Shown here: in pieces, positions 43,936 through 52,074 of the stretch
Position numbering within the stretch: the stretch's first letter is position 1
How the letters are laid out: every line of letters begins with the position of its first letter
DNA from: a bacterium
GTDB lineage: Bacteria > Armatimonadota > Zipacnadia > Zipacnadales > UBA11051
Assembly (NCBI GenBank): GCA_030604405.1
Contig: JAUVVY010000001.1
Coordinates: forward strand, 186,001-250,000
Direction of reading: 5' to 3'
Length of the DNA: 64,000 nt
Notes under the pieces: generated by a model
What the model was told of the DNA's origin: nothing
Database searches by the model: none
The model's input: the letters and a program-made list of their open reading frames with translations, nothing else
Translations under genes and position numbers: made by a program

Positions 43936-43965
43936 TTGTCATAACGGGTGTTCTTGTGGTAAAAT
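43936..43965 (+). promoter_or_regulatory. Strong sigma70-type promoter of the ubiquitin-like operon
   Basis: TTGTCA at 43936-43941, 18-nt spacer, TAAAAT at 43960-43965. Each hexamer matches consensus at five of six positions. Predicted start of transcription near 43972, about 50 nt before the first E2 gene (ATG 44024, GAGGA at 44010-44014). No operator or terminator was found between promoter and gene, which suggests expression without a dedicated repressor site I can see. Confidence 0.6.
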
Positions 43966-44023: not shown

Positions 44024-44524
44024 ATGAAAAGATCTACGGCTGAAAGGCGAAGCAGCCCACGGCTGCGGCGGCTGTGGGCTGATTATATGGCCCTGAACGA
44101 ACTGGTCAAGCTGAGCGATCTTATCGAGATCGCTCCCGGTGGCGACCCGGCGGACCGCTACCGGGTGCTTTATCGCTGCCGGAGTCTGGTAATCGTAACA
44201 GGCCAAGATGCCCCGGAGGTTTCAGAGCGGCACATCTGTGATATCTATCTGCACCGCGACTACCCGCAGCGGCCGCCGTACTTGATCTGGCGCACCTCCA
44301 TCTTCCATCCCAACATCATGCCGCCCGAACGCGGCGGGGCGGTATGCATCGGCGGCTGGAGCCCCAGTGAGAGCCTGCCCAACCTTGTCTTGCGAGTCGG
44401 GGAAATGATACAGTATAGAAACTTTGACCTCGATGATGTGCTCAACGAGGAAGCCGTGAAGTGGGCCAAGTATCATCAGGACCAGTTTCCGATTGACGAC
44501 AGGCCACTCGCGCCTGGTCACTAA
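44024..44524 (+). CDS. E2-like ubiquitin-conjugating enzyme 1
   Basis: 166 residues with the UBC fold: N-terminal helix RLRRLWADYMALNELV, strands ending in ICDIYLHRDYPQRPP, then WRTSIFHPNI containing the HPN motif (95-97), and GAVCIGGWSP with the catalytic Cys108 and following Trp, then the helix NLVLRVGEMIQYRNFDLDDVLNEEA. This order (YP-x-x-PP, HPN, Cys, W-S/P) is that of eukaryotic E2s, closer than many bacterial E2 relatives, which often lack HPN. It would carry the Ubl as a thioester. A C-terminal FPIDDR motif is shared with the second E2 of the cluster. The ATG has GAGGA 9 nt upstream. It is the first gene after the promoter. Confidence 0.85.
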   Translation: MKRSTAERRSSPRLRRLWADYMALNELVKLSDLIEIAPGGDPADRYRVLYRCRSLVIVTGQDAPEVSERHICDIYLHRDYPQRPPYLIWRTSIFHPNIMPPERGGAVCIGGWSPSESLPNLVLRVGEMIQYRNFDLDDVLNEEAVKWAKYHQDQFPIDDRPLAPGH

Positions 44525-44548
44525 TAAGAACCCGTGGAGGCGATAGTC

Positions 44549-45562
44549 ATGTCCCGACCACACTGGCTGCTGGGCGTTGTCTGCTGTGCGACATTGCTGT
44601 TGGGGGCGGCGATGTGCAGCGCTGATTTCAGTCAGGCCTTCAAGCAGATTGACCCCGCTGTCGTCACCATCACCGCCGGGGAGAAGTCCGGCTCCGGTTT
44701 CATCGTTTCTGCTGACGGCCACGTCGTCACCAACCGCCACGTGGTGGAGGAGGACGGGGACGTACAGATCGTGGTCAAGCTGCAAAACGACGAGGAGGTT
44801 GAGGCAGCCATCGCCCACAGTTCTATCGAGCGCGACCTGTGTGTGCTGAAGATCGAGCGCGCCAATCTGCCGGTGGTGCAGTTCGCCTCCTCCGACAAGC
44901 TTGAATCAGGCCAGGAGATTGCGGCGATCGGCGCTCCGCTGGGCCTGGAGCATTCCGTGACCCGGGGCGTCATATCAGCGCTGGCCCGCGAGATCGAGGG
45001 CAAGACCTATATCCAGCTAGACGCCGCGCTGAATGAAGGCAACTCCGGCGGCCCGGTTATCAACGAGGACGCCCAGGTAATCGGTATGGCGGTGATGGTG
45101 GCCGAGGAGGCGGAGAACGTCGGCTTCGCCATCCCCAGCGTCGCGGTCATGCAGTTTCTGCAGGCCAATGGGCTGAATTTCAACGTTGCACTGGGGGAGG
45201 CTCCCGCTCCGCCATCAGCACCGGTGGAGCCTGAAATCGAGGCTGCAGAAGGCGAGGCGGAGGAGCCCGCCCCGGAACCGACGCCTGGGGAGGTTGCGCC
45301 TCGGCCGGAGGCTGCCGGTGCGGGAACGGGCCAACCGCAGATGGGGGCTTCGTGGTTGGGCCTGGTGATCCTTATTAGCTTCGTAGTAGCCCTGCTGACC
45401 GCCCTGGTAGTGAGCCTGATACTCGCACGGCGGACGCCGACCCCGGCTGCGCAAGTCGCGGCCGGCGGGCCTACAGGGCCCGCTACGCCGGCAGCGCCAC
45501 CGCCACCGGCTCCCGAAGAACCGGAAGACGATCTTAGCGACATAGACATAGATCTGCACTAA
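44549..45562 (+). CDS. Membrane-anchored trypsin-like (S1C/DegP-type) serine protease without PDZ domain
   Basis: 337 residues. Signal peptide (LLGVVCCATLLLGAAMCSA), protease domain with His64 in VVTNRHVV, Asp96 in SIERDLCVLKI and Ser166 in NEGNSGGP, then an Ala/Pro/Glu-rich linker, a transmembrane helix (about 270-292) and a short cytoplasmic acidic tail ending DIDIDLH. The HtrA-type catalytic domain lacks a PDZ module. Topology puts the protease in the periplasm and the tail in the cytoplasm. The ATG at 44549 has GGAGG about 8 nt upstream (the ORF from a GTG at 44534 covers it). It sits between E2 and Ubl genes, a surprising place for a periplasmic protease; it could sense envelope state or process substrates. 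Confidence 0.88.
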   Translation: MSRPHWLLGVVCCATLLLGAAMCSADFSQAFKQIDPAVVTITAGEKSGSGFIVSADGHVVTNRHVVEEDGDVQIVVKLQNDEEVEAAIAHSSIERDLCVLKIERANLPVVQFASSDKLESGQEIAAIGAPLGLEHSVTRGVISALAREIEGKTYIQLDAALNEGNSGGPVINEDAQVIGMAVMVAEEAENVGFAIPSVAVMQFLQANGLNFNVALGEAPAPPSAPVEPEIEAAEGEAEEPAPEPTPGEVAPRPEAAGAGTGQPQMGASWLGLVILISFVVALLTALVVSLILARRTPTPAAQVAAGGPTGPATPAAPPPPAPEEPEDDLSDIDIDLH

Positions 45563-45574
45563 GGAGGCTTTGCA

Positions 45575-45844
45575 GTGGGTAAAGTAAAAGTCACAATCAC
45601 GGATACAACCGGCAGCAAATCTCAGGAGGCTTCTCTGCCCGATGACGCACCGGTGCGCCGCATCATCGCCAAGCTCGTCCAGATGATGAGCCTGCCCACC
45701 ACGGGACCAGACGGCCAGCCGATGAGCTACAAGTTTCATCACAAGGCCTCGGGGACCCAGCTTGCTGACGAGCAGACCCTCGCTGACGGCAAGGTCCAGG
45801 ACGGCGACGTGCTGCGCTTGCAGCCTGAAATCACGGCGGGTTAG
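45575..45844 (+). CDS. Ubiquitin-like protein (YukD-like beta-grasp), C-terminal Ala-Gly
   Basis: 89 residues. KVKVTITDTTGSK opens the first hairpin, then LPDDAPVRRIIAKLVQMM is the helix, then SYKFHHKASGTQLADEQTLADG and VQDGDVLRLQPEI, the beta-grasp pattern of ubiquitin/YukD-type proteins with the D-G-D turn before the last strand. The C-terminus is ...PEITAG followed directly by TAG, leaving a single free terminal Gly, so it would not need a protease to mature. Start is GTG at 45575 with AAGGAGG overlapping the upstream stop. It is expected to be adenylated by the adjacent E1 and transferred to the E2s. C-terminal single Gly rather than GG is a deviation from ubiquitin. Confidence 0.85.
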   Translation: MGKVKVTITDTTGSKSQEASLPDDAPVRRIIAKLVQMMSLPTTGPDGQPMSYKFHHKASGTQLADEQTLADGKVQDGDVLRLQPEITAG

Positions 45845-45855
45845 GCGGGCGGCGG

Positions 45856-47082
45856 ATGAATGACGAACAAGCTCAGGAGCAAGCTGTAGAGGTCACCTTC
45901 CCGGAGCCAATCGATGTTGACCTGCATGAAGACAGGTACCACCGGCTGCGGCTGATTCAATGGTGGGACCAAGAGCGCCTGCAGAACGCGCGCGTACTGG
46001 TCGTTGGCGCCGGTGCGCTGGGCAATGAGATTCTCAAGAACATTGCCCTGCTTGGCATTGGCCGCACGATGATCGTGGATATAGACATCATCGAGGAGTC
46101 CAATCTCACTCGCTCCATTCTGTTCCGCGCCTCCGACAACGGCGGCGAAAAGGCGGCAGTGGCCGCCCGCGCCGGGATGGAGATCAACCCCGACATCACG
46201 GTCGAGGGCCGCAACGCCGACATCAATTACGATGTCGGCCTGGGCGTGTTCGGTGAGATGGACGTCGTCTTCGGCGCCCTGGATAACCGTGAGGCGCGCG
46301 TGACGATGAACTCGGCATGTTACAAGCTGGGAGTGCCGTTTGTTGACGGGGCCATCGAAGTGACAAATGGGATGGTGCGCGTGTTTGTGGGCGGTGAAGA
46401 TCAGCCCTGCTACGAATGCACCATGTCCGAGTTGGACTACCAGTTGCTGAATATGCGGCGTTCCTGTGCGCTCTTGACCCGTGACGAGATTCTCGAGGGC
46501 AAGGTCCCGACCACCCCCACCATTGGCTCCATCATCGCCGGCATGCAGGTGCAAGAGGCCATCAAGCTGCTACACGCCGACCGCGGCTTGTCCACACTGG
46601 CGGGCAAAGGCTACTTCGTTAACGGTCTTACGCACGACTCTTACATCATCAACTATAAGCGCCGCGAAGACTGCCCAGCCCATGAAACTCTGGAGGATAT
46701 TCAAAAACTCGATGTCCGCAGCACTGAGCTCACCGGGGCCGAGGCGCTGGAGATGGCGCGATCGCAAGTGTCAGCCGAGGCGGTCGTAGAATTCCACCGG
46801 GAGCTGTGCACGCGGCTCTACTGCCCAAAGTGTGACGAATACGAGGACTATTTCCGCTCGCTGGGCAAGCTTTCGGTCAAAGAAGCCGAGTGCCCGCACT
46901 GCGAGACCATGCGCGAGCCGGACCTGACCCACAGCCTCAACGGCACCGAGGATTACCTGGACAAGACCTTAGCCGAGCTGGGGCTGCCGCCTTATGATAT
47001 AATCACCGGCCGCGCCGGCTGGGACATGAAACATTTCCTCATCGCTGGCGACCGCCAGGAAGCTTTGGGCAGCATCGCCTGA
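45856..47082 (+). CDS. E1-like Ubl-activating enzyme (ThiF/MoeB/UBA family)
   Basis: 408 residues. Adenylation domain: GAGALG (51-56), VDIDIIEESNLTRSILF with the E1 Arg finger region, GGEKA (Lys99), and ALDNREAR (143-148) that binds ATP/Mg. Zinc: CYEC (185-188), then C273-P-A-H276 instead of the second CxxC of MoeB, and a C-terminal zinc-ribbon-like pair CPKC (323-326) and CPHC (346-349). Cys204 (RRSCALLTRDEILEGKVPTTPTIG, in part) is a candidate catalytic Cys in the place where E1s carry theirs. The extra C-terminal ~130 residues could recruit E2. The segment before the fold holds IDVDLHED (19-26). The ATG at 45856 lies 11 bp after the Ubl gene. Confidence 0.88.
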   Translation: MNDEQAQEQAVEVTFPEPIDVDLHEDRYHRLRLIQWWDQERLQNARVLVVGAGALGNEILKNIALLGIGRTMIVDIDIIEESNLTRSILFRASDNGGEKAAVAARAGMEINPDITVEGRNADINYDVGLGVFGEMDVVFGALDNREARVTMNSACYKLGVPFVDGAIEVTNGMVRVFVGGEDQPCYECTMSELDYQLLNMRRSCALLTRDEILEGKVPTTPTIGSIIAGMQVQEAIKLLHADRGLSTLAGKGYFVNGLTHDSYIINYKRREDCPAHETLEDIQKLDVRSTELTGAEALEMARSQVSAEAVVEFHRELCTRLYCPKCDEYEDYFRSLGKLSVKEAECPHCETMREPDLTHSLNGTEDYLDKTLAELGLPPYDIITGRAGWDMKHFLIAGDRQEALGSIA

Positions 47083-47241
47083 GGCAGGCGGAGGTTGGGT
47101 GCAAGGGGGCGACATGCCGGGGCGGGGTGCCCGGCGCCAGCGATAGTAATGCAGAATAGCAGTCGCCCGAGAAGCGAAGAACTGAGACGTATTCTGGCCA
47201 AACGTGCCCTGCCCTCAGCAAGCAACAGGGAGGCAAAAACC
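47083..47241. other. Gap between E1 and hicB
   Basis: About 160 bp. An in-frame extension of hicB (from 47095) reads SEELRRILAKRALPSAS, Arg-rich, without a ribosome site; it is probably not translated. The sequence GGCGGGGTGCCCGGCGCC has inverted pieces that could fold. This is likely where HicBA transcription starts or where the cassette was inserted. I see no clear promoter hexamers. Confidence 0.4.
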
Positions 47242-47517
47242 ATGAAGCGGACATACACAGTGATTCTAACCAAGGAGCCGGAGGGTGGCTATGCGGTGAT
47301 TGTGCCGGCCCTGCCGGGGTGCTTCACGGAGGGCGCGACCATACCAGAGGCGCTGGCAATGGCACAGGAGGCCATAGAGTGCTACGTAGAAAGCCTGCTG
47401 CAGCATGGTGAACCGGTGCCCGAAGACGGCCCGATCCTGAGCTTTGATCGGGGCAACGTCACTGAGGGCTTCCTGTTTCGCGTGACGGCCAACCCTGAGG
47501 TGCCTGTACATGTCTAA
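47242..47517 (+). CDS. hicB: HicB-family antitoxin
   Basis: 91 residues. YTVILTKEPEGGYAVIVPALPGCFTEGAT followed by EALAMAQEAIECYVESLLQHGEPVP is the partial RNase-H-like fold of HicB (a recognisable G-x-Y-x-V-x-x-P-x-L-P-G-C motif). HicB neutralises the HicA mRNA interferase and usually represses its own promoter; here no DNA-binding domain is visible after residue 60. The ATG at 47242 has AGGGAGG about 9 nt upstream, preferred to the upstream frame. HicB comes before HicA with an 8-bp overlap, the less common order. Confidence 0.88.
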   Translation: MKRTYTVILTKEPEGGYAVIVPALPGCFTEGATIPEALAMAQEAIECYVESLLQHGEPVPEDGPILSFDRGNVTEGFLFRVTANPEVPVHV

Positions 47518-47737
47518 GCTGCCCCGCGTGACCGGCAAGGAAATGGTTCGCGCGCTACAGAGGGCAGGCTTTGTCGAAGATCGGCAGAAGGGCAGCCATC
47601 TGACCCTGCTTCACCCTGAAACGCGCCTCAGGACGGTTGTGCCGATACGCGGGCGCGCCCTGGGGCCAGGTCTCACCCACAGCATTCTCAAACAGGCCGG
47701 CTTGACTGCGGAAGACCTACGCCGCCTGTTGAAATAG
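47510..47737 (+). CDS. hicA: HicA-family mRNA interferase toxin
   Basis: 75 residues: KLPRVTGKEMVRALQRAGF, then RQKGSHLTLLHPE with the catalytic His of the double-stranded-RNA-binding-like fold, and a C-terminal helix (LTAEDLRRLLK). HicA cleaves mRNA in the absence of HicB. It overlaps hicB by 8 bp (ATGTCTAA). The stop is TAG at 47735-47737, and the JAMM gene starts 66 bp later. The pair may be a passenger stabilising the operon, or it may be under the control of the Ubl pathway. Confidence 0.88.
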   Translation: MSKLPRVTGKEMVRALQRAGFVEDRQKGSHLTLLHPETRLRTVVPIRGRALGPGLTHSILKQAGLTAEDLRRLLK

Positions 47738-47803
47738 TAATCCGGACACGTGGGGAAGCGGGGTGGGCATCTGCATGGGCCGAGGGAAGAAAGGACATGG
47801 GCG

Positions 47804-48868
47804 ATGGAACACAAACCTCCCGAGCAGCATGACGAGGAGCCACAAATAGATTTACACGAGCAGGAAGCAGGGCCTGAGGAGGCCGCTGTAGTTGCGCGAG
47901 TACCGGTTATATACTTCGCCGAAGAAGTTGTCGCTGAGATGAAGCGACACGCTCGCTCGGACACGCGCCAGGAGATCGCGGGCGTGCTCCTGGGCGAAGT
48001 CAACTACCAGCGCAACACGGTCTTAGTGCATGCCTCCATCGCCGCCGAACACACCCAGTCTTCGCGTGGCAACGTGACCTTCACTCACGACACCTGGGCC
48101 CAGATCAATGCGGCGGTGGATGCACAATACCCGGACCAGGCTATCGTCGGCTGGTATCACAGCCACCCGGATTTCGGCATTTTTCTCTCCAACTATGATA
48201 CCTTTATTCACCAAAACTTCTTTTCAGCCCAGTGGCAGATTGCCTATGTTGTGGACCCGGTGCGGCAGGAAGAAGGCTGCTTTGTGTGGGAAAATGGGCA
48301 ACTGGTGCGGGTGCCGGATCTGAAGCTGTACATGAACGCATCGGACTACCACGAGGCGAGCGAAATGGAGCAACCGAAGCTGCCGGATCCGTTCACCGCA
48401 GGCGGCGACAGGGTGCCTGAGGCGTATCTCCAGACCGGACAGAAGTGGGCGCTGGGTATTCTCGCGGTGCTGGTGGCCATGACGCTGGTGCTGCAGATGT
48501 ATGCGCTGGGCGAGGTCCACCGGCTCAGAGATGAGATCGCGGGAACCAGAGAAGCTGTCGCTGCCATTGAGGCCGATCTTGCTGGCCTGCACAGTCCTGA
48601 GGGCGATGTAGCGCCGGGCGAAGCGGAAATGGGGCCTGACATCGCCGCACCACCAGCCGCTGTCCTGCCCTGCGATGTCTATGAGGTTACGCCCGGCGAT
48701 ACGCTGCAGGCCATCAGTGAAGAATTCTATGGAACTCCCGATAACGCGCAGATGATTGCGCTAGTCAACGACCTTGGAGAAGATCAGCAGTTGATGCCCG
48801 GCATGGAGTTGTGGATACCGCAGTTGCCCGGACCTGAGGACGAGGCCGACGAAGCAGTGGAGCGATAA
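47804..48868 (+). CDS. JAMM/JAB1 deubiquitinase-like metalloprotease with membrane span and LysM domain
   Basis: 354 residues. N-terminal tail with QIDLHEQE (14-21), JAMM domain with Glu57 (RQEIAGVLLGE) and the zinc signature H119-S-H121-P-D-F-G-I-F-L-S129-N-Y-D132, exactly HxHx7Sx2D. Then a transmembrane helix (about 215-235), a short coiled coil (LRDEIAGTREAVAAIEADLAG) and a C-terminal LysM domain (VYEVTPGDTLQAISEEFYG ... MPGMELWIP, 292-338). With the JAMM domain in the cytoplasm the LysM would lie outside, against peptidoglycan. It would remove the Ubl from targets. ATG at 47804 with AAGGAC 7 nt upstream; a GTG at 47750 is poorer. A JAMM-TM-LysM protein is unusual. Confidence 0.85.
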   Translation: MEHKPPEQHDEEPQIDLHEQEAGPEEAAVVARVPVIYFAEEVVAEMKRHARSDTRQEIAGVLLGEVNYQRNTVLVHASIAAEHTQSSRGNVTFTHDTWAQINAAVDAQYPDQAIVGWYHSHPDFGIFLSNYDTFIHQNFFSAQWQIAYVVDPVRQEEGCFVWENGQLVRVPDLKLYMNASDYHEASEMEQPKLPDPFTAGGDRVPEAYLQTGQKWALGILAVLVAMTLVLQMYALGEVHRLRDEIAGTREAVAAIEADLAGLHSPEGDVAPGEAEMGPDIAAPPAAVLPCDVYEVTPGDTLQAISEEFYGTPDNAQMIALVNDLGEDQQLMPGMELWIPQLPGPEDEADEAVER

Positions 48869-48871
48869 GCG

Positions 48872-49411
48872 ATGAGTAGTGCCAGATTGCGCAGGCTATA
48901 CGCCGATTACCAGACCGTGCGGGATGAATTCGCGGGCCATCCGCTGATAGATGTGACGGCGCTGGCCGGCGACCCGCCTGAGGTCTATGAGGTCGTCTAT
49001 CGCATCAAGGGCCTGGAGCTTGACGAACGCACCGGCCGGCCCCGGGAGCGCAACCACCACAAAGCCAAGATCTACCTGACCCGGGCCTATCCGCGTGAGA
49101 AGCCGAAGTGCGACCTGGAGACGCCGATTTTTCACCCCAACTTCGGCTCCTATATATGCATCGGCGACCACTGGGCCGCCGGCGAGACGCTCGTGGACGT
49201 AATCATCCAGATCGGGGAGATGATCCAGTACCAGAGCTACAATCCCAAAAGCCCGCTGAACGCCGTCGCCGCGCAGTGGGCCCAGCAGAATAAGCACTTG
49301 TTTCCGATTGACGACCGCGACCTCTACCAGCCCGAGGTTGACATAGACCTCCTGGGCGAGGAACAAGGCGGCGGAGAAGAGGACAACGACCTGGGTATCG
49401 AGCTGCTATAG
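48872..49411 (+). CDS. E2-like ubiquitin-conjugating enzyme 2
   Basis: 179 residues. UBC fold with RLRRLYADYQTVRDEF, YLTRAYPREKPKCD, ETPIFHPNFGSYICIGDHW giving HPN (88-90) and catalytic Cys96, then IIQIGEMIQYQSYNP. A paralogue of the first E2: they share RLRRL-x-ADY, the YP turn, FHPN, the CIG-x-x-W stretch, GEMIQY and a C-terminal FPIDDR motif. It has an acidic tail absent from the first: VDIDLLGEE (156-164) and a stretch of Glu/Gly/Asp. It follows the JAMM gene by 3 bp. Two E2s per Ubl suggest different targets or a relay. Confidence 0.85.
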   Translation: MSSARLRRLYADYQTVRDEFAGHPLIDVTALAGDPPEVYEVVYRIKGLELDERTGRPRERNHHKAKIYLTRAYPREKPKCDLETPIFHPNFGSYICIGDHWAAGETLVDVIIQIGEMIQYQSYNPKSPLNAVAAQWAQQNKHLFPIDDRDLYQPEVDIDLLGEEQGGGEEDNDLGIELL

Positions 49412-49511
49412 CCGGTCCGCGCAGCCTGCACCGATACTTCGGAGTCCATGCCGGCAGATAGCAAGTCTATTTCATTGCGCGACCGCTCGCCGTGCCAGTT
49501 CATCTACAGCT

Positions 49512-50330
49512 ATGCGCTGCCCTTTCTGCAAGGACAATATCAGGATACAGGGAAGGTTCTGCCCGCGATGCGGCGAGCAGATATTCGGCCTGCCTGTTAG
49601 CCGGCCCGGTCGCCAGCCCGGCGCGCCAGGCTCTACTCCACCCGACGCGGCGCCGCCCTCGCCCGGACTCCCACGGCCGGTTACTCCACCCACTCAGTCG
49701 GGTCCCGCAGCGCCGCCGGACACAGTTTTCCTGGATCTGGATTTCGGAGCCCAAGAGCCTGCGACAGCCCCTGGTGGCGGTGCTGCCGGCGTACAAGTGG
49801 CTGACGACGAGTACGTAGGCAAGATCTGCCCATATTGCCGCTTCCCGATTAAGTCCGCCGAGGAGATCGTCGTCTGCCCGCAGTGCGAGGTGCCACACCA
49901 CCTCGACTGCTGGCGGGAAAACGAGGGCTGCACCACCTACGGTTGCACCGGCGGTACGCCTGCCGCCCAGCCGCTAACGCGCGGCGGCCCGCTGCCATCA
50001 CAAACCGCTTCGCGTCACGGGCCCCAGTCTCCGCCTTTGACCCCGGACGCACGGCGCCGGGTGGAGGCCACCTTCGCCGAGATGCAGGTGCGCGAACTCA
50101 ATGCCCGAGCCACCAACGCCCTCGTGCTGTCGGTGCTGGGCATCCTGTGCTTTTTGCCGGCAATGATCGGCTTCTTCATGGCTATCGCGGTGCTGAGTAA
50201 AGTCGCCCAGAATGCCGCATTTGCCAATCATCCCGCCAAAGGCCGTGCCATCGCCGCAATAGTCATCGGCGTATTCTGGCTCTTCGTATGGGGCTCCGTC
50301 ATGCTGTCAGGCCTCGGCGGTATGGGCTAG
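49512..50330 (+). CDS. Membrane-anchored zinc-ribbon/RING-like protein (candidate E3)
   Basis: 272 residues. N-terminal zinc ribbon (C3-x2-C6, C17-x2-C20), a Pro-rich linker with VFLDLDFGAQE (72-82), a RING-like treble clef: C106-x2-C109, C122-x2-C125, H129/H130, C133 followed by Trp, C140-x4-C145 (CPQCEVPHHLDCW), then a Pro/Thr-rich linker and two C-terminal helices (about 203-224, 244-264). This matches the prokaryotic RING type found in E2/Ubl operons. It would hold the E2 at the membrane. The ATG at 49512 has no good ribosome site, so translation could depend on the 100-bp leader. Confidence 0.82.
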   Translation: MRCPFCKDNIRIQGRFCPRCGEQIFGLPVSRPGRQPGAPGSTPPDAAPPSPGLPRPVTPPTQSGPAAPPDTVFLDLDFGAQEPATAPGGGAAGVQVADDEYVGKICPYCRFPIKSAEEIVVCPQCEVPHHLDCWRENEGCTTYGCTGGTPAAQPLTRGGPLPSQTASRHGPQSPPLTPDARRRVEATFAEMQVRELNARATNALVLSVLGILCFLPAMIGFFMAIAVLSKVAQNAAFANHPAKGRAIAAIVIGVFWLFVWGSVMLSGLGGMG

Positions 50331-50431: not shown

Positions 50432-51232
50432 TCATTCCTCCAGCCCGAATATCTTCGCTGCCGTACCGCCCCAGATCATATCCCGGTACTTCTGCTCCAT
50501 GTCCACGTGATCCATGAAGCGCTCGTAGTCGTTTTTCACGTCCTCCATCATCTCCGGGTCAACGTCCGTGCCGAAGACGATCTTCTCATACGGGTGCTTG
50601 TCGCCCATCAGGCCGTACTGCTCATCGCGCGCCCACCAGAAAACATCAGCGACGAACTCAGGGCTTTTCTTCTTGAAAGTGGAGCCGGTGATGTCGAAGA
50701 CGATATTGGGGTGCATGCGGGCAAGCTCACCGGCCTCATCGTACCACGGGTTGCCCAGGTGCGCGCCGATGATGTTCAACTCCGGGAACCGCCGTGCTAT
50801 TCGATCCAGGTAGACCGGCCGCATCCGCGCCATCGAAACGTCCATGAAGCGGTCGGACGGCTGGTTGCGGGCGATGATGCCCAGGTGAAAGAGGATCGGC
50901 ATATTCAGCGACGCCGCTCGCGCGTAGATCGGCATGTACTCATCGGCGTCATAGTTGTCCAGCGGCAGGATCATCTTGAGGCCCTTGAGGCCCAGGTCCT
51001 TGCAGCGGTCCACGGCCCGCGGGCTGTCCTCGCCAAGGCGGATGAAGCCCATGGTCAGGAGAAAATCAGGGTGCGCCTCCTGCGCTTTGGCCATGGTGTC
51101 GTTGTCAATTTCACCCGGCGGCCAGCCGGTGATCACAACGCGGTCAATGCCGAGCTTGTCGGCATGTTCAAGCAGCCGGTCCATATATTCTTCCCACGGC
51201 TGCCACAAATGATGATGCGCATCAATTACCAT
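50432..51232 (-). CDS. Amidohydrolase-family metallo-hydrolase (amidohydrolase_2)
   Basis: 266 residues. MVIDAHHHLWQPWEEY gives the H-x-H at the start of the TIM barrel, with FLTMGFIRLG, MKILFHLG-type stretch (LFHLGIIAR), RFPELNIIGAHLGNPW and VFGTDVDPE (Asp at the end of strand 8). This is the amidohydrolase_2 group (gamma-resorcylate decarboxylase/TIM-barrel hydrolases). Substrate unknown. The ATG has AAGGAGG 8 nt upstream. It is about 70-75 percent identical by eye to the next gene, a tandem copy. Confidence 0.85.
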   Translation of the reverse strand: MVIDAHHHLWQPWEEYMDRLLEHADKLGIDRVVITGWPPGEIDNDTMAKAQEAHPDFLLTMGFIRLGEDSPRAVDRCKDLGLKGLKMILPLDNYDADEYMPIYARAASLNMPILFHLGIIARNQPSDRFMDVSMARMRPVYLDRIARRFPELNIIGAHLGNPWYDEAGELARMHPNIVFDITGSTFKKKSPEFVADVFWWARDEQYGLMGDKHPYEKIVFGTDVDPEMMEDVKNDYERFMDHVDMEQKYRDMIWGGTAAKIFGLEE

Positions 51233-51273
51233 CTAAGAGACCTCCTTGCAAGTTTGGCAAGAACGCTGCGTCG

Positions 51274-52074
51274 TCAGTCGGCCAGTCCAAATATCTTCGC
51301 TGCCGTGCCGCCCATGATCAGGTCGCGGTACTTTTGCGCCATCTCCACGTGATCCATGAAGGCTTCGTAATCGTTCTTGACATCTTCCACCAGGTCGGTG
51401 CCGACATCGGTGCCGAAAACGATCTTCTCAAACGGGTGCTTGTCGCCCATCAGGCCGTACTGCTCGTCGCGTGCCCACCAGAAAATATCGGCGATGAACT
51501 GCGGGTGCTTTTTCTTCAAGGTCGAGCCGGTCAGGTCAAAGACGACATTGGGGTGCATGCGTGCGATTTCGCCGGCCTCGTCGTACCACGGGTTGCCCAG
51601 ATGCGCGCCGATGATGTCCAGTTCCGGGAAGCTGCGGGCGATGCGATCCAGATACACTGGCCGCATCCGCGCCATTGACACATCCATGAACCTGTCGCGC
51701 GGCCCGCGGGCCACTATGCCGAGGTGGAACAGCATCGGCAGGCCCAGGCAGGCGGCGCGGGCGTAAATCGGCATGTACTCGTCGGCATCATAGTTGTCCA
51801 ACGGGCGGATGACCTTGATGCCGTGGAGGCCGAGGTCCTTGATGCGGTCCGCCGCGCGTGGACTCTCCTCACCCAGCCGGATGTAGCCGAGGCAGAGCAG
51901 AAAATCGGGGTTGGCCTCCTGCGCCTTGGCCAGGGTATCGTTGTCAGACTGCCCCGGCGGCCCTGACGAGCAGACCGCGACGCGGTCAATGCCGAGATCG
52001 GCGCAGACCTCACGCAGCTTGTCAACGTACGGCTCCCAGTCTCTGGGAAGATGATGATGCACGTCAATTACCAT
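51274..52074 (-). CDS. Amidohydrolase-family metallo-hydrolase, tandem paralogue
   Basis: 266 residues, nearly the same length and order of motifs as the 50432 gene: MVIDVHHHLPRDWEPYVD (H-x-H), DNYDADEYMPIYARAACL, LPMLFHLGIVARGP, FPELDIIGAHLGNPWYDE, VFGTDVGTD. Differences cluster in the loops and the first 60 residues. The ATG has GGAG 7 nt upstream. The pair, together with the cupin upstream, are colinear and may form an operon for an aromatic or carboxylic substrate. The duplication may be recent or the two may differ in specificity. Confidence 0.85.
   Translation of the reverse strand: MVIDVHHHLPRDWEPYVDKLREVCADLGIDRVAVCSSGPPGQSDNDTLAKAQEANPDFLLCLGYIRLGEESPRAADRIKDLGLHGIKVIRPLDNYDADEYMPIYARAACLGLPMLFHLGIVARGPRDRFMDVSMARMRPVYLDRIARSFPELDIIGAHLGNPWYDEAGEIARMHPNVVFDLTGSTLKKKHPQFIADIFWWARDEQYGLMGDKHPFEKIVFGTDVGTDLVEDVKNDYEAFMDHVEMAQKYRDLIMGGTAAKIFGLAD

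What the first reader, a model, noticed from the sequence alone, without database searches (positions are those of the whole stretch)
44024..50330. Full eukaryote-like ubiquitin-type operon in a bacterium with membrane-tied enzymes
The sequence shows in one run: two E2s with HPN and catalytic Cys, a ubiquitin-fold protein with free terminal Gly, an E1 with all ATP-site motifs, an exact JAMM deubiquitinase signature and a RING-like protein. The RING and JAMM proteins and the associated protease all have membrane spans. Known relatives: Caldiarchaeum-type operons, YukD-like Ubl/E1/E2/RING/JAB sets found by comparative genomics, and the BilABCD and Cap2/Cap3 systems. I infer a membrane-proximal conjugation pathway; its targets and trigger are unknown. 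The individual families are known, but I am not aware of a described system with this full set plus an S1C protease, HicBA and LysM.
Basis: partly seen in the sequence, partly recalled or inferred. Interest (0 to 1): 0.93.

Follow-up and report, generated by a model that had tools for sequence, protein, structure and literature searches.

The report
Membrane-tied bacterial ubiquitin pathway operon
In one run of genes this bacterium carries every part of a ubiquitin-like protein-tagging pathway, three of its proteins with predicted membrane spans; the pathway is predicted to tag proteins at the inner membrane, its gene set recurs in several other bacterial phyla, and many of its proteins share a short motif that may bind the tag.

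Summary
At 44024-50330 lie two HPN-Cys E2s, an HtrA-like protease, a YukD-like Ubl ending at Gly, an E1, HicBA, a JAMM-TM-LysM protein and a membrane RING. The organism belongs to Armatimonadota (Ca. Zipacnadia/WS1). Its genome holds one such E1, one YukD, one Prok-RING_1, one such JAMM and two E2s, all here.

The set recurs: Ubl, JAMM, HPN-E2 and RING lie near E1 in 39 of 45 loci with enough flank, across Armatimonadota, Clostridia, Planctomycetota, Acidobacteria and others. HicBA is a passenger.

This kind of operon was predicted by comparative genomics (Burroughs 2011, recalled, not read). It is not BilABCD or CBASS.

New here: (1) all 73 Ubls found share PEIxAG and 44 carry a tail beyond it, two of them a lipoprotein, so JAMM maturation is likely. 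(2) A short acidic-hydrophobic motif such as DIDIDL recurs in protease tail, E1 start, E2 tail, JAMM start and RING linker of Armatimonadota and, in a smaller set, Clostridia, above shuffled controls; it is absent or rare elsewhere. A SUMO-type (SIM-like) Ubl-binding role is inferred; one AlphaFold test did not show docking. Targets and trigger remain unknown.

The parts
44024..44524 (+). first E2 (E2a), UBC fold, HPN...Cys108
   Evidence: UQ_con 1.9e-8; HPN..C motif; found near E1 only in some relatives
44534..45562 (+). HtrA-like trypsin protease: signal/TM 12-30, protease domain, TM 278-296, proline-rich tail ending DLSDIDIDLH
   Evidence: Trypsin_2 8e-34; spans; motif in 18 of 19 Armatimonadota-type and 14 of 14 Clostridia proteases
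45530..45559 (+). C-terminal motif of the protease (DLSDIDIDLH)
45575..45844 (+). YukD-like ubiquitin-like protein, 89 aa, ends LRLQPEITAG
   Evidence: YukD 3e-16; PEIxAG in 73 of 73 Ubls; profile matches only ubiquitin chains in PDB at E up to 0.01
45856..47082 (+). E1: adenylation domain, Cys204, Zn knuckle C185/C188/C273/H276, C-terminal domain with C323/C326/C346/C349; N-terminal motif IDVDLHED
   Evidence: ThiF 3e-52; alignments; AlphaFold pLDDT 90 and PDB matches
47242..47517 (+). HicB-like antitoxin (passenger)
   Evidence: HicB_lk_antitox 6e-14; not conserved at this place
47510..47737 (+). HicA-like toxin (passenger)
   Evidence: HicA_toxin 2e-17; not conserved at this place
47750..48868 (+). 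JAMM metalloprotease, TM 235-253, then LysM; start GTG 47750 or, more likely, ATG 47804; weak N-terminal motif QIDLHEQ
   Evidence: JAB 6e-14, LysM 1e-5; JAMM residues invariant 48 of 48; nearest solved relatives Rpn11
48872..49411 (+). second E2 (E2b), HPN...Cys96, with motif VDIDLL and a looser C-terminal NDLGIELL
   Evidence: UQ_con 6e-10; H88 P89 N90 C96 invariant in 25 of 25 chosen
49512..50330 (+). membrane RING protein: zinc ribbon, motif FLDLDFG, Prok-RING_1, two C-terminal TMs
   Evidence: Prok-RING_1 2e-12; eight ligands invariant in 19 of 19 chosen; TMs
43936..43965 (+). sigma-70-like site just upstream of the first gene
   Evidence: 3 such sites in the region against a shuffle mean of 2.5, so weak

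Best explanation
The operon encodes a single complete ubiquitin-type conjugation set (one YukD-like Ubl, one E1, two E2s, one RING protein and one JAMM protein, the last two with predicted membrane spans) with conserved catalytic residues, and it is predicted to attach the Ubl reversibly to proteins at the cytoplasmic face of the inner membrane. Inferred course: the JAMM enzyme frees the Ubl C-terminal Gly where a tail is present (in this genome the gene already ends at Gly) and later removes the tag; the E1 adenylates the Ubl and loads it on Cys204; its C-terminal domain would pass it to Cys108 or Cys96 of the E2s; the RING protein would direct transfer at the membrane. A short acidic-hydrophobic motif (DIDIDL type) on the cytoplasmic tail of the HtrA-like protease, the E1 N-terminus, the E2 C-terminus, the JAMM N-terminus and the RING linker is most likely a SIM-like docking site for the Ubl, the one part found nearly everywhere that does not carry it as a tail. 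This would couple tagged membrane proteins to a periplasmic protease and to a peptidoglycan-binding deconjugase, i.e. envelope protein quality control. Shown: genes, residues, motif enrichment, gene-set conservation, Ubl tails. Predicted or inferred: spans, topology, each reaction, motif partner, role.
Against: No biochemistry was found for any of it. The AlphaFold model of a natural Ubl-E2-motif fusion (P0130) gave no ordered, docked motif: the tail has pLDDT about 49-62 and no strand, and its relative P0131 lacks the motif. The motif was defined after looking at these sequences, and they are related. In Clostridia the E1 lacks it (1 of 25, shuffle mean 4.8) and few RING-type hits have it (5 of 49, mean 3.1); the Clostridia E2 matches lie inside or just after the fold, not at a terminus (0 of 22 terminal). 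In the other phyla it is absent or at chance: protease 0 of 10, E2 0 of 16, JAB 1 of 34, E1 1 of 34, RING 2 of 42, so the core cascade does not need it. Two Ubls match the pattern by chance. For E2 tails the motif is only moderately more alike (0.57) than the stretch before it (0.34). The window's own JAMM protein has only a weak version and its E2b C-terminus (DLGIELL) does not match the strict pattern. Topology rests on hydropathy alone. A strict H-D-S pattern for the protease was met in 9 of 17 Armatimonadota-type, 12 of 14 Clostridia and 2 of 10 other proteases (GxSGG-type motif 17, 14 and 6), so not every homologue is shown to be active. No target or trigger is known.
Confidence: 0.6

Rival explanations
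1. It is an anti-phage defence operon that works like BilABCD or CBASS Cap2/Cap3, tagging phage or signalling proteins on infection.
For: The bacterial Ubl systems with known function that I know of are mostly defence (recalled; PMC10097602 seen as a listing); E1 and JAMM give weak hits to PADLOC E1-E2, BilD and JAB profiles (2e-14, 2e-8, 1e-9) and to NF058523 far below its cut-off. HicBA nearby.
Against: No gene in the operon looks like an effector. tblastn with this E1 found one distant record (33% identity) among 72,556 plasmids at E up to 1e-40 and only two partial MoeB matches among 50,697 phage records at E up to 1e-20. E1 is present in 23 of 41 genomes of its order at E below 1e-60, and two more hold a fragment. 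Membrane and LysM parts fit an envelope role.
Confidence: 0.15
2. The motif is not a Ubl-binding (SIM-like) site but docks these proteins on another hub, for example the FHA protein of the system or a partner outside the operon.
For: 12 of 14 Clostridia proteases have a Thr just before the motif (TDF) and in a Clostridia locus an FHA domain is fused to the E2; AlphaFold shows no docking on the Ubl.
Against: The window genome has no clear FHA partner of this type (best 7.7e-4) yet keeps the motif; a planctomycete and an acidobacterial locus have the FHA protein while that group lacks the motif in protease and E2.
Confidence: 0.25
3. A sulfur-carrier or cofactor pathway of ThiF/MoeB type with unrelated extra genes.
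Against: HPN-Cys E2, RING and JAMM kept beside it in 39 of 45 loci; profile nearest to eukaryotic E1s.
Confidence: 0.03
4. The Ubl serves a type VII secretion system, like YukD in Bacillus, and the enzymes regulate it.
For: Pfam and NCBIfam name the Ubl YukD / EccD N-domain.
Against: The only YukD found in the genome lies here; no secretion gene in the operon. Other T7SS genes were not searched.
Confidence: 0.04

Closest known systems
Bacterial YukD-like Ubl/E1/E2/RING/JAB operons predicted by Burroughs, Iyer and Aravind 2011 (Mol. BioSyst.; recalled, not held)
   Same: Same set of families, from memory
   Different: Whether that paper described the HtrA-like protease, LysM, tails, lipoprotein fusion or the shared motif could not be checked
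Caldiarchaeum subterraneum E1/E2/RING/Rpn11 cascade (PMC5654768, passages read)
   Same: E1, E2, small RING, and a JAMM that cleaves a pro-ubiquitin tail; the JAMM profile here is nearest to a PDB entry named N11-like (6fjv, the Caldiarchaeum enzyme as I recall) and to RPN11
   Different: Ubl ends AG not GG and is YukD-like; here RING, JAMM and protease have predicted membrane spans; two E2s
BilABCD (described in PMC11354881, passages read)
   Same: Bacterial E1, E2, JAMM and Ubl in one operon
   Different: Bil has a two-domain Ubl, an E2 with a CEHH motif, an E1 with inactive plus active adenylation domains; here one-domain Ubl, HPN E2, single adenylation domain E1, plus RING
Operon types 6a-6e of Iyer 2006 (PMC1779556, passages read)
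   Same: E1, E2, JAB and, in some, Ubl neighbours
   Different: In the passages seen E1 is often fused to JAB or E2, and rows 6a-6e, as far as shown, list no RING gene
SUMO-interacting motifs (PMC12751080, passages read)
   Same: Short hydrophobic core with acidic flank, in disordered tails of ligases and effectors
   Different: Here hydrophobic residues alternate with acidic ones; binding untested

Membership tests
Bacterial YukD-Ubl/E1/E2/RING/JAB conjugation systems (features recalled) | YukD-family Ubl with C-terminal Gly | tested here: met
   YukD 3e-16, ends ITAG, PEIxAG 73 of 73
Bacterial YukD-Ubl/E1/E2/RING/JAB conjugation systems (features recalled) | E1, HPN-Cys E2, Prok-RING_1 and JAMM in the same operon | tested here: met
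Bacterial YukD-Ubl/E1/E2/RING/JAB conjugation systems (features recalled) | ATP-dependent thioester relay and conjugation | not testable with these tools
   needs purified proteins
BilABCD | Ubl with two beta-grasp domains | tested here: not met
   89-aa protein with one YukD domain
BilABCD | E2 with CEHH active site instead of HPN | tested here: not met
   both E2s have HPN..C; CEHH from PMC11354881 passages
BilABCD | E1 with inactive and active adenylation domains | tested here: not met
   408 aa, one ThiF domain 31-274
CBASS Cap2/Cap3 | fused E2-E1 and a nucleotidyltransferase neighbour (as row 6b of PMC1779556; naming recalled) | tested here: not met
   separate E1 and E2 genes; no such family among the nine operon proteins
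Caldiarchaeum-type cascade | Ub precursor with di-Gly cleaved by Rpn11-like JAMM | tested here: inconclusive
   JAMM profile nearest to Rpn11; Ubl has AG, and the window gene has no tail
SUMO-interacting motif (SIM) | binds the Ubl groove as an added beta strand | tested here: inconclusive
   AlphaFold of natural fusion P0130 shows no ordered motif, low tail pLDDT
HtrA/Deg proteases | Ser protease domain with H, D, S triad | tested here: met
   Trypsin_2 8e-34; the window protein has the H, D and GNSGG motifs; no PDZ hit, and the HtrA-type NCBIfam scores are below their cut-offs

The most novel reading that the evidence does not exclude
Bacteria of several phyla run a ubiquitin-like envelope quality-control pathway, and two of the lineages have their own SIM code: a short acidic-hydrophobic tail motif on E1, E2, RING, JAMM and a transmembrane HtrA-like protease reads the Ubl, so that tagged inner-membrane proteins are handed to a periplasmic protease and untagged by a peptidoglycan-anchored JAMM enzyme, a bacterial counterpart of SUMO/ERAD logic.
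Probability: 0.28. Interest if true: 0.88.

Novelty: new variant of a known kind. Interest (0 to 1): 0.66.

Why it matters
In the listings of the eight answered paper searches made here I saw no report of a reconstituted bacterial cascade with HPN E2s and a RING protein; subscription journals and preprints are mostly not held, so this is weak evidence of absence. The family looks chromosomal, is single-copy in this genome, is present in named Clostridia strains (Massiliimalia massiliensis, Anoxynatronum buryatiense) and is built from enzymes whose nearest solved relatives by profile are mostly eukaryotic or archaeal. If it works as predicted, it gives a tractable bacterial system for the origin of E1-E2-RING transfer, Ubl precursor processing and SIM-type reading, and it ties Ubl conjugation to the cell envelope rather than to phage defence.

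Tried and rejected
HicBA as a functional part: rejected, not conserved at this place. Extra proteins with the C-terminal motif elsewhere: of the 30 true-stop matches in 26 genomes, 14 were not of this system; four are copies of one unrelated enzyme family, and the other ten lie in unrelated, short or antisense frames or could not be assigned, so no new target was found. A second pattern gave 10 matches in the same 26 genomes: three end in TGG; of the other seven, five are E2 ends (three of them already in the first search) and two are repeats of an E2 end just downstream of the E2 in one genome. AlphaFold docking of the motif: no support. An alignment mixing Ubls and E2s (A3) was misaligned and not used. 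The per-family HMMs drifted: 'E2b' also caught an approximately 360-aa FHA protein and 'RING' also caught zinc-ribbon proteins; so E2s were restricted to ORFs with HPN..C (65 of 105 hits), and the RING requirement was repeated with a strict ligand pattern, while the RING rows still include non-RING hits. An FHA protein as missing partner in the window genome: none clear. Burroughs 2011 could not be read. PHROGs gave nothing useful. The proteasome-family hit in the genome rings in 10 of 14 control genomes too, E. coli and B. subtilis among them, and was not followed. Groups used are by record title, except that L066 ('Gelria') and L074 ('Syntrophomonas') were put with Armatimonadota because of gene order and identity. 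The scan kept 80 of 176 relatives, best first, so the phylum list is partial.
Full report
What is there. Family hits are clear for every gene. The window lies in a 4.37 Mb genome of 96.9% completeness. Two same-genus genomes have contigs of the same length as records named Candidatus Zipacnadia and candidate division WS1, so it belongs to Armatimonadota.

A single, self-contained set. In this genome the E1 family, Prok-RING_1, YukD and this kind of JAMM protein each have one copy and UQ_con has two, all inside the operon. At E below 1e-60 the E1 was found in 23 of the 41 genomes of its own order (G000-G040; two more, G030 and G039, hold a fragment) and in 40 of 291 in the phylum. It gave one distant hit (33% identity) in 72,556 plasmid records and only partial MoeB hits in two of 50,697 phage records. 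This looks like a resident chromosomal system, patchily kept.

Recurrence. One scan of named genomes found 176 relatives of which the best 80 were kept, from Armatimonadota, Clostridia, Planctomycetota, Kiritimatiellae, Victivallales, Verrucomicrobiales, Acidobacteria, Riflebacteria, Aminicenantes and a few others by record title. Of 81 loci (80 plus the window), 45 had enough flank; Ubl, JAMM, HPN-E2 and RING lay near the E1 in 39 of these, and again in 39 with a strict RING ligand pattern. Misses: L054 and L123 (RING), L099 and L122 (Ubl), L107 (E2), L112 (E2 and RING). The genes were found by HMMs iterated on these loci themselves, and some drifted, so E2 was required to show HPN..Cys and JAMM its metal motif. 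The protease was near in 14 of 14, 11 of 15 and 6 of 16.

Ubl precursor. All 73 Ubls found in these loci (all distinct) hold PEIxAG. In 29, the window included, the protein stops at the Gly; in 44 it runs on by 1-25 residues or, in two Ruminococcaceae genomes, by 318 residues that look like a lipoprotein with its signal and lipobox. Conservation stops at the Gly. This fits processing by the neighbouring JAMM enzyme, as shown for the Caldiarchaeum pro-ubiquitin (PMC5654768, passages). A separate internal start for the lipoprotein is not excluded.

Membrane anatomy. Hydropathy gives two spans in the protease (12-30, 278-296), one in the JAMM protein (235-253) before the LysM, and two at the RING C-terminus (204-222, 247-265), and none in the window's E1, E2s or Ubl. 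Among homologues, 21 of 47, 27 of 32 and 24 of 34 JAMM-type ORFs have a span, and 22 of 48 chosen JAMM proteins have LysM. The protease would sit in the periplasm with its tail in the cytoplasm; orientation is inferred.

The shared motif. The protease tail ends in DLSDIDIDLH here, in a close variant in other Armatimonadota, and in ERTDFDIDILE or a variant in Clostridia, after a linker that is poorly conserved (motif identity 0.78-0.79 among tails chosen for having it, linker 0.14-0.42; for E2 tails 0.57 against 0.34). Similar stretches stand at the E1 N-terminus, E2 C-terminus, JAMM N-terminus and RING linker. Counts against windowed shuffles are: for example Armatimonadota-type protease 18 of 19 (mean 1.9), E2 19 of 27 (2.4), RING 16 of 29 (1.3), while other ORFs of the same loci have 16 of 151 (19.2). 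In Clostridia the E1 (1 of 25) and RING-type hits (5 of 49) do not clearly exceed chance; in the remaining phyla nothing does (protease 0 of 10, E2 0 of 16, JAB 1 of 34, E1 1 of 34, RING 2 of 42). The regular expression was written after seeing the sequences and the sequences are related, so these numbers are descriptive. As a partly independent check I searched 26 genomes for any C-terminus of that pattern: 16 of the 30 matches with a true stop were this system's protease or E2, in some genomes with the E2 on another contig than the E1; the reversed pattern gave 21 matches with no stop filter, against 41. The Ubl is the part found nearly everywhere that does not bear the motif as a tail (two chance matches in 73), and E1, E2, E3, DUB and reader proteins all need to touch it; SUMO partners use similar motifs (PMC12751080, passages). 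Hence the SIM-like reading. A direct attempt to see docking in a natural Ubl-E2-motif fusion failed.

What it is not. HicBA is a local insertion. The set fails defining features of BilABCD and CBASS (membership table). It meets the sequence features of the YukD-Ubl/E1/E2/RING/JAB operons predicted in 2011, which I know only from memory. Iyer 2006 lists related operons without a RING gene in the passages read (PMC1779556).

Judgement. The core cascade prediction is strong; the membrane site, the motif's partner and the envelope role are hypotheses. Interest lies in the cross-phylum spread, the tail evidence and the shared motif, all testable with proteins made in E. coli.

Noticed in passing
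L094:8424-9929 and L104:8675-9895: Ubl ending ITAG runs in frame into a lipoprotein with signal peptide and lipobox in two Ruminococcaceae genomes, like a ubiquitin fusion precursor.
   Followed up: partly
L025:2631-3551: Natural fusion of a YukD-like Ubl, an HPN E2 and a C-terminal DDLEVEF motif in a genome of the same class.
   Followed up: partly
L069:15741-16823, L097:12584-13648, L127:12014-13081, L088:11174-12919: An approximately 360-aa protein with a C-terminal FHA domain is a further component; in L088 (Clostridia) it is fused to the E2. The part before the FHA domain got no Pfam hit over a cut-off in the four proteins scanned, apart from the E2 domain in L088. No clear copy in the window genome.
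   Followed up: partly
L162:6416-7567: The C-terminal coding end of the E2 (DELEIELL and stop) recurs twice more downstream at about 300-base steps in a same-genus genome.
   Followed up: no
L041:10532-11795 / L058:1490-2753: A different HicAB-like set is inserted upstream of the Ubl in another Armatimonadota locus.
   Followed up: no
window 50432-52074, - strand: Two neighbouring, similar 266-aa genes that look like amidohydrolases by eye, probably a tandem duplication, next to the operon.
   Followed up: no
L124:14764-15462, L127:14464-15111: Acidobacterial E2s end in EQKIVIS / TEKISLV, perhaps a diverged form of the tail motif.
   Followed up: no
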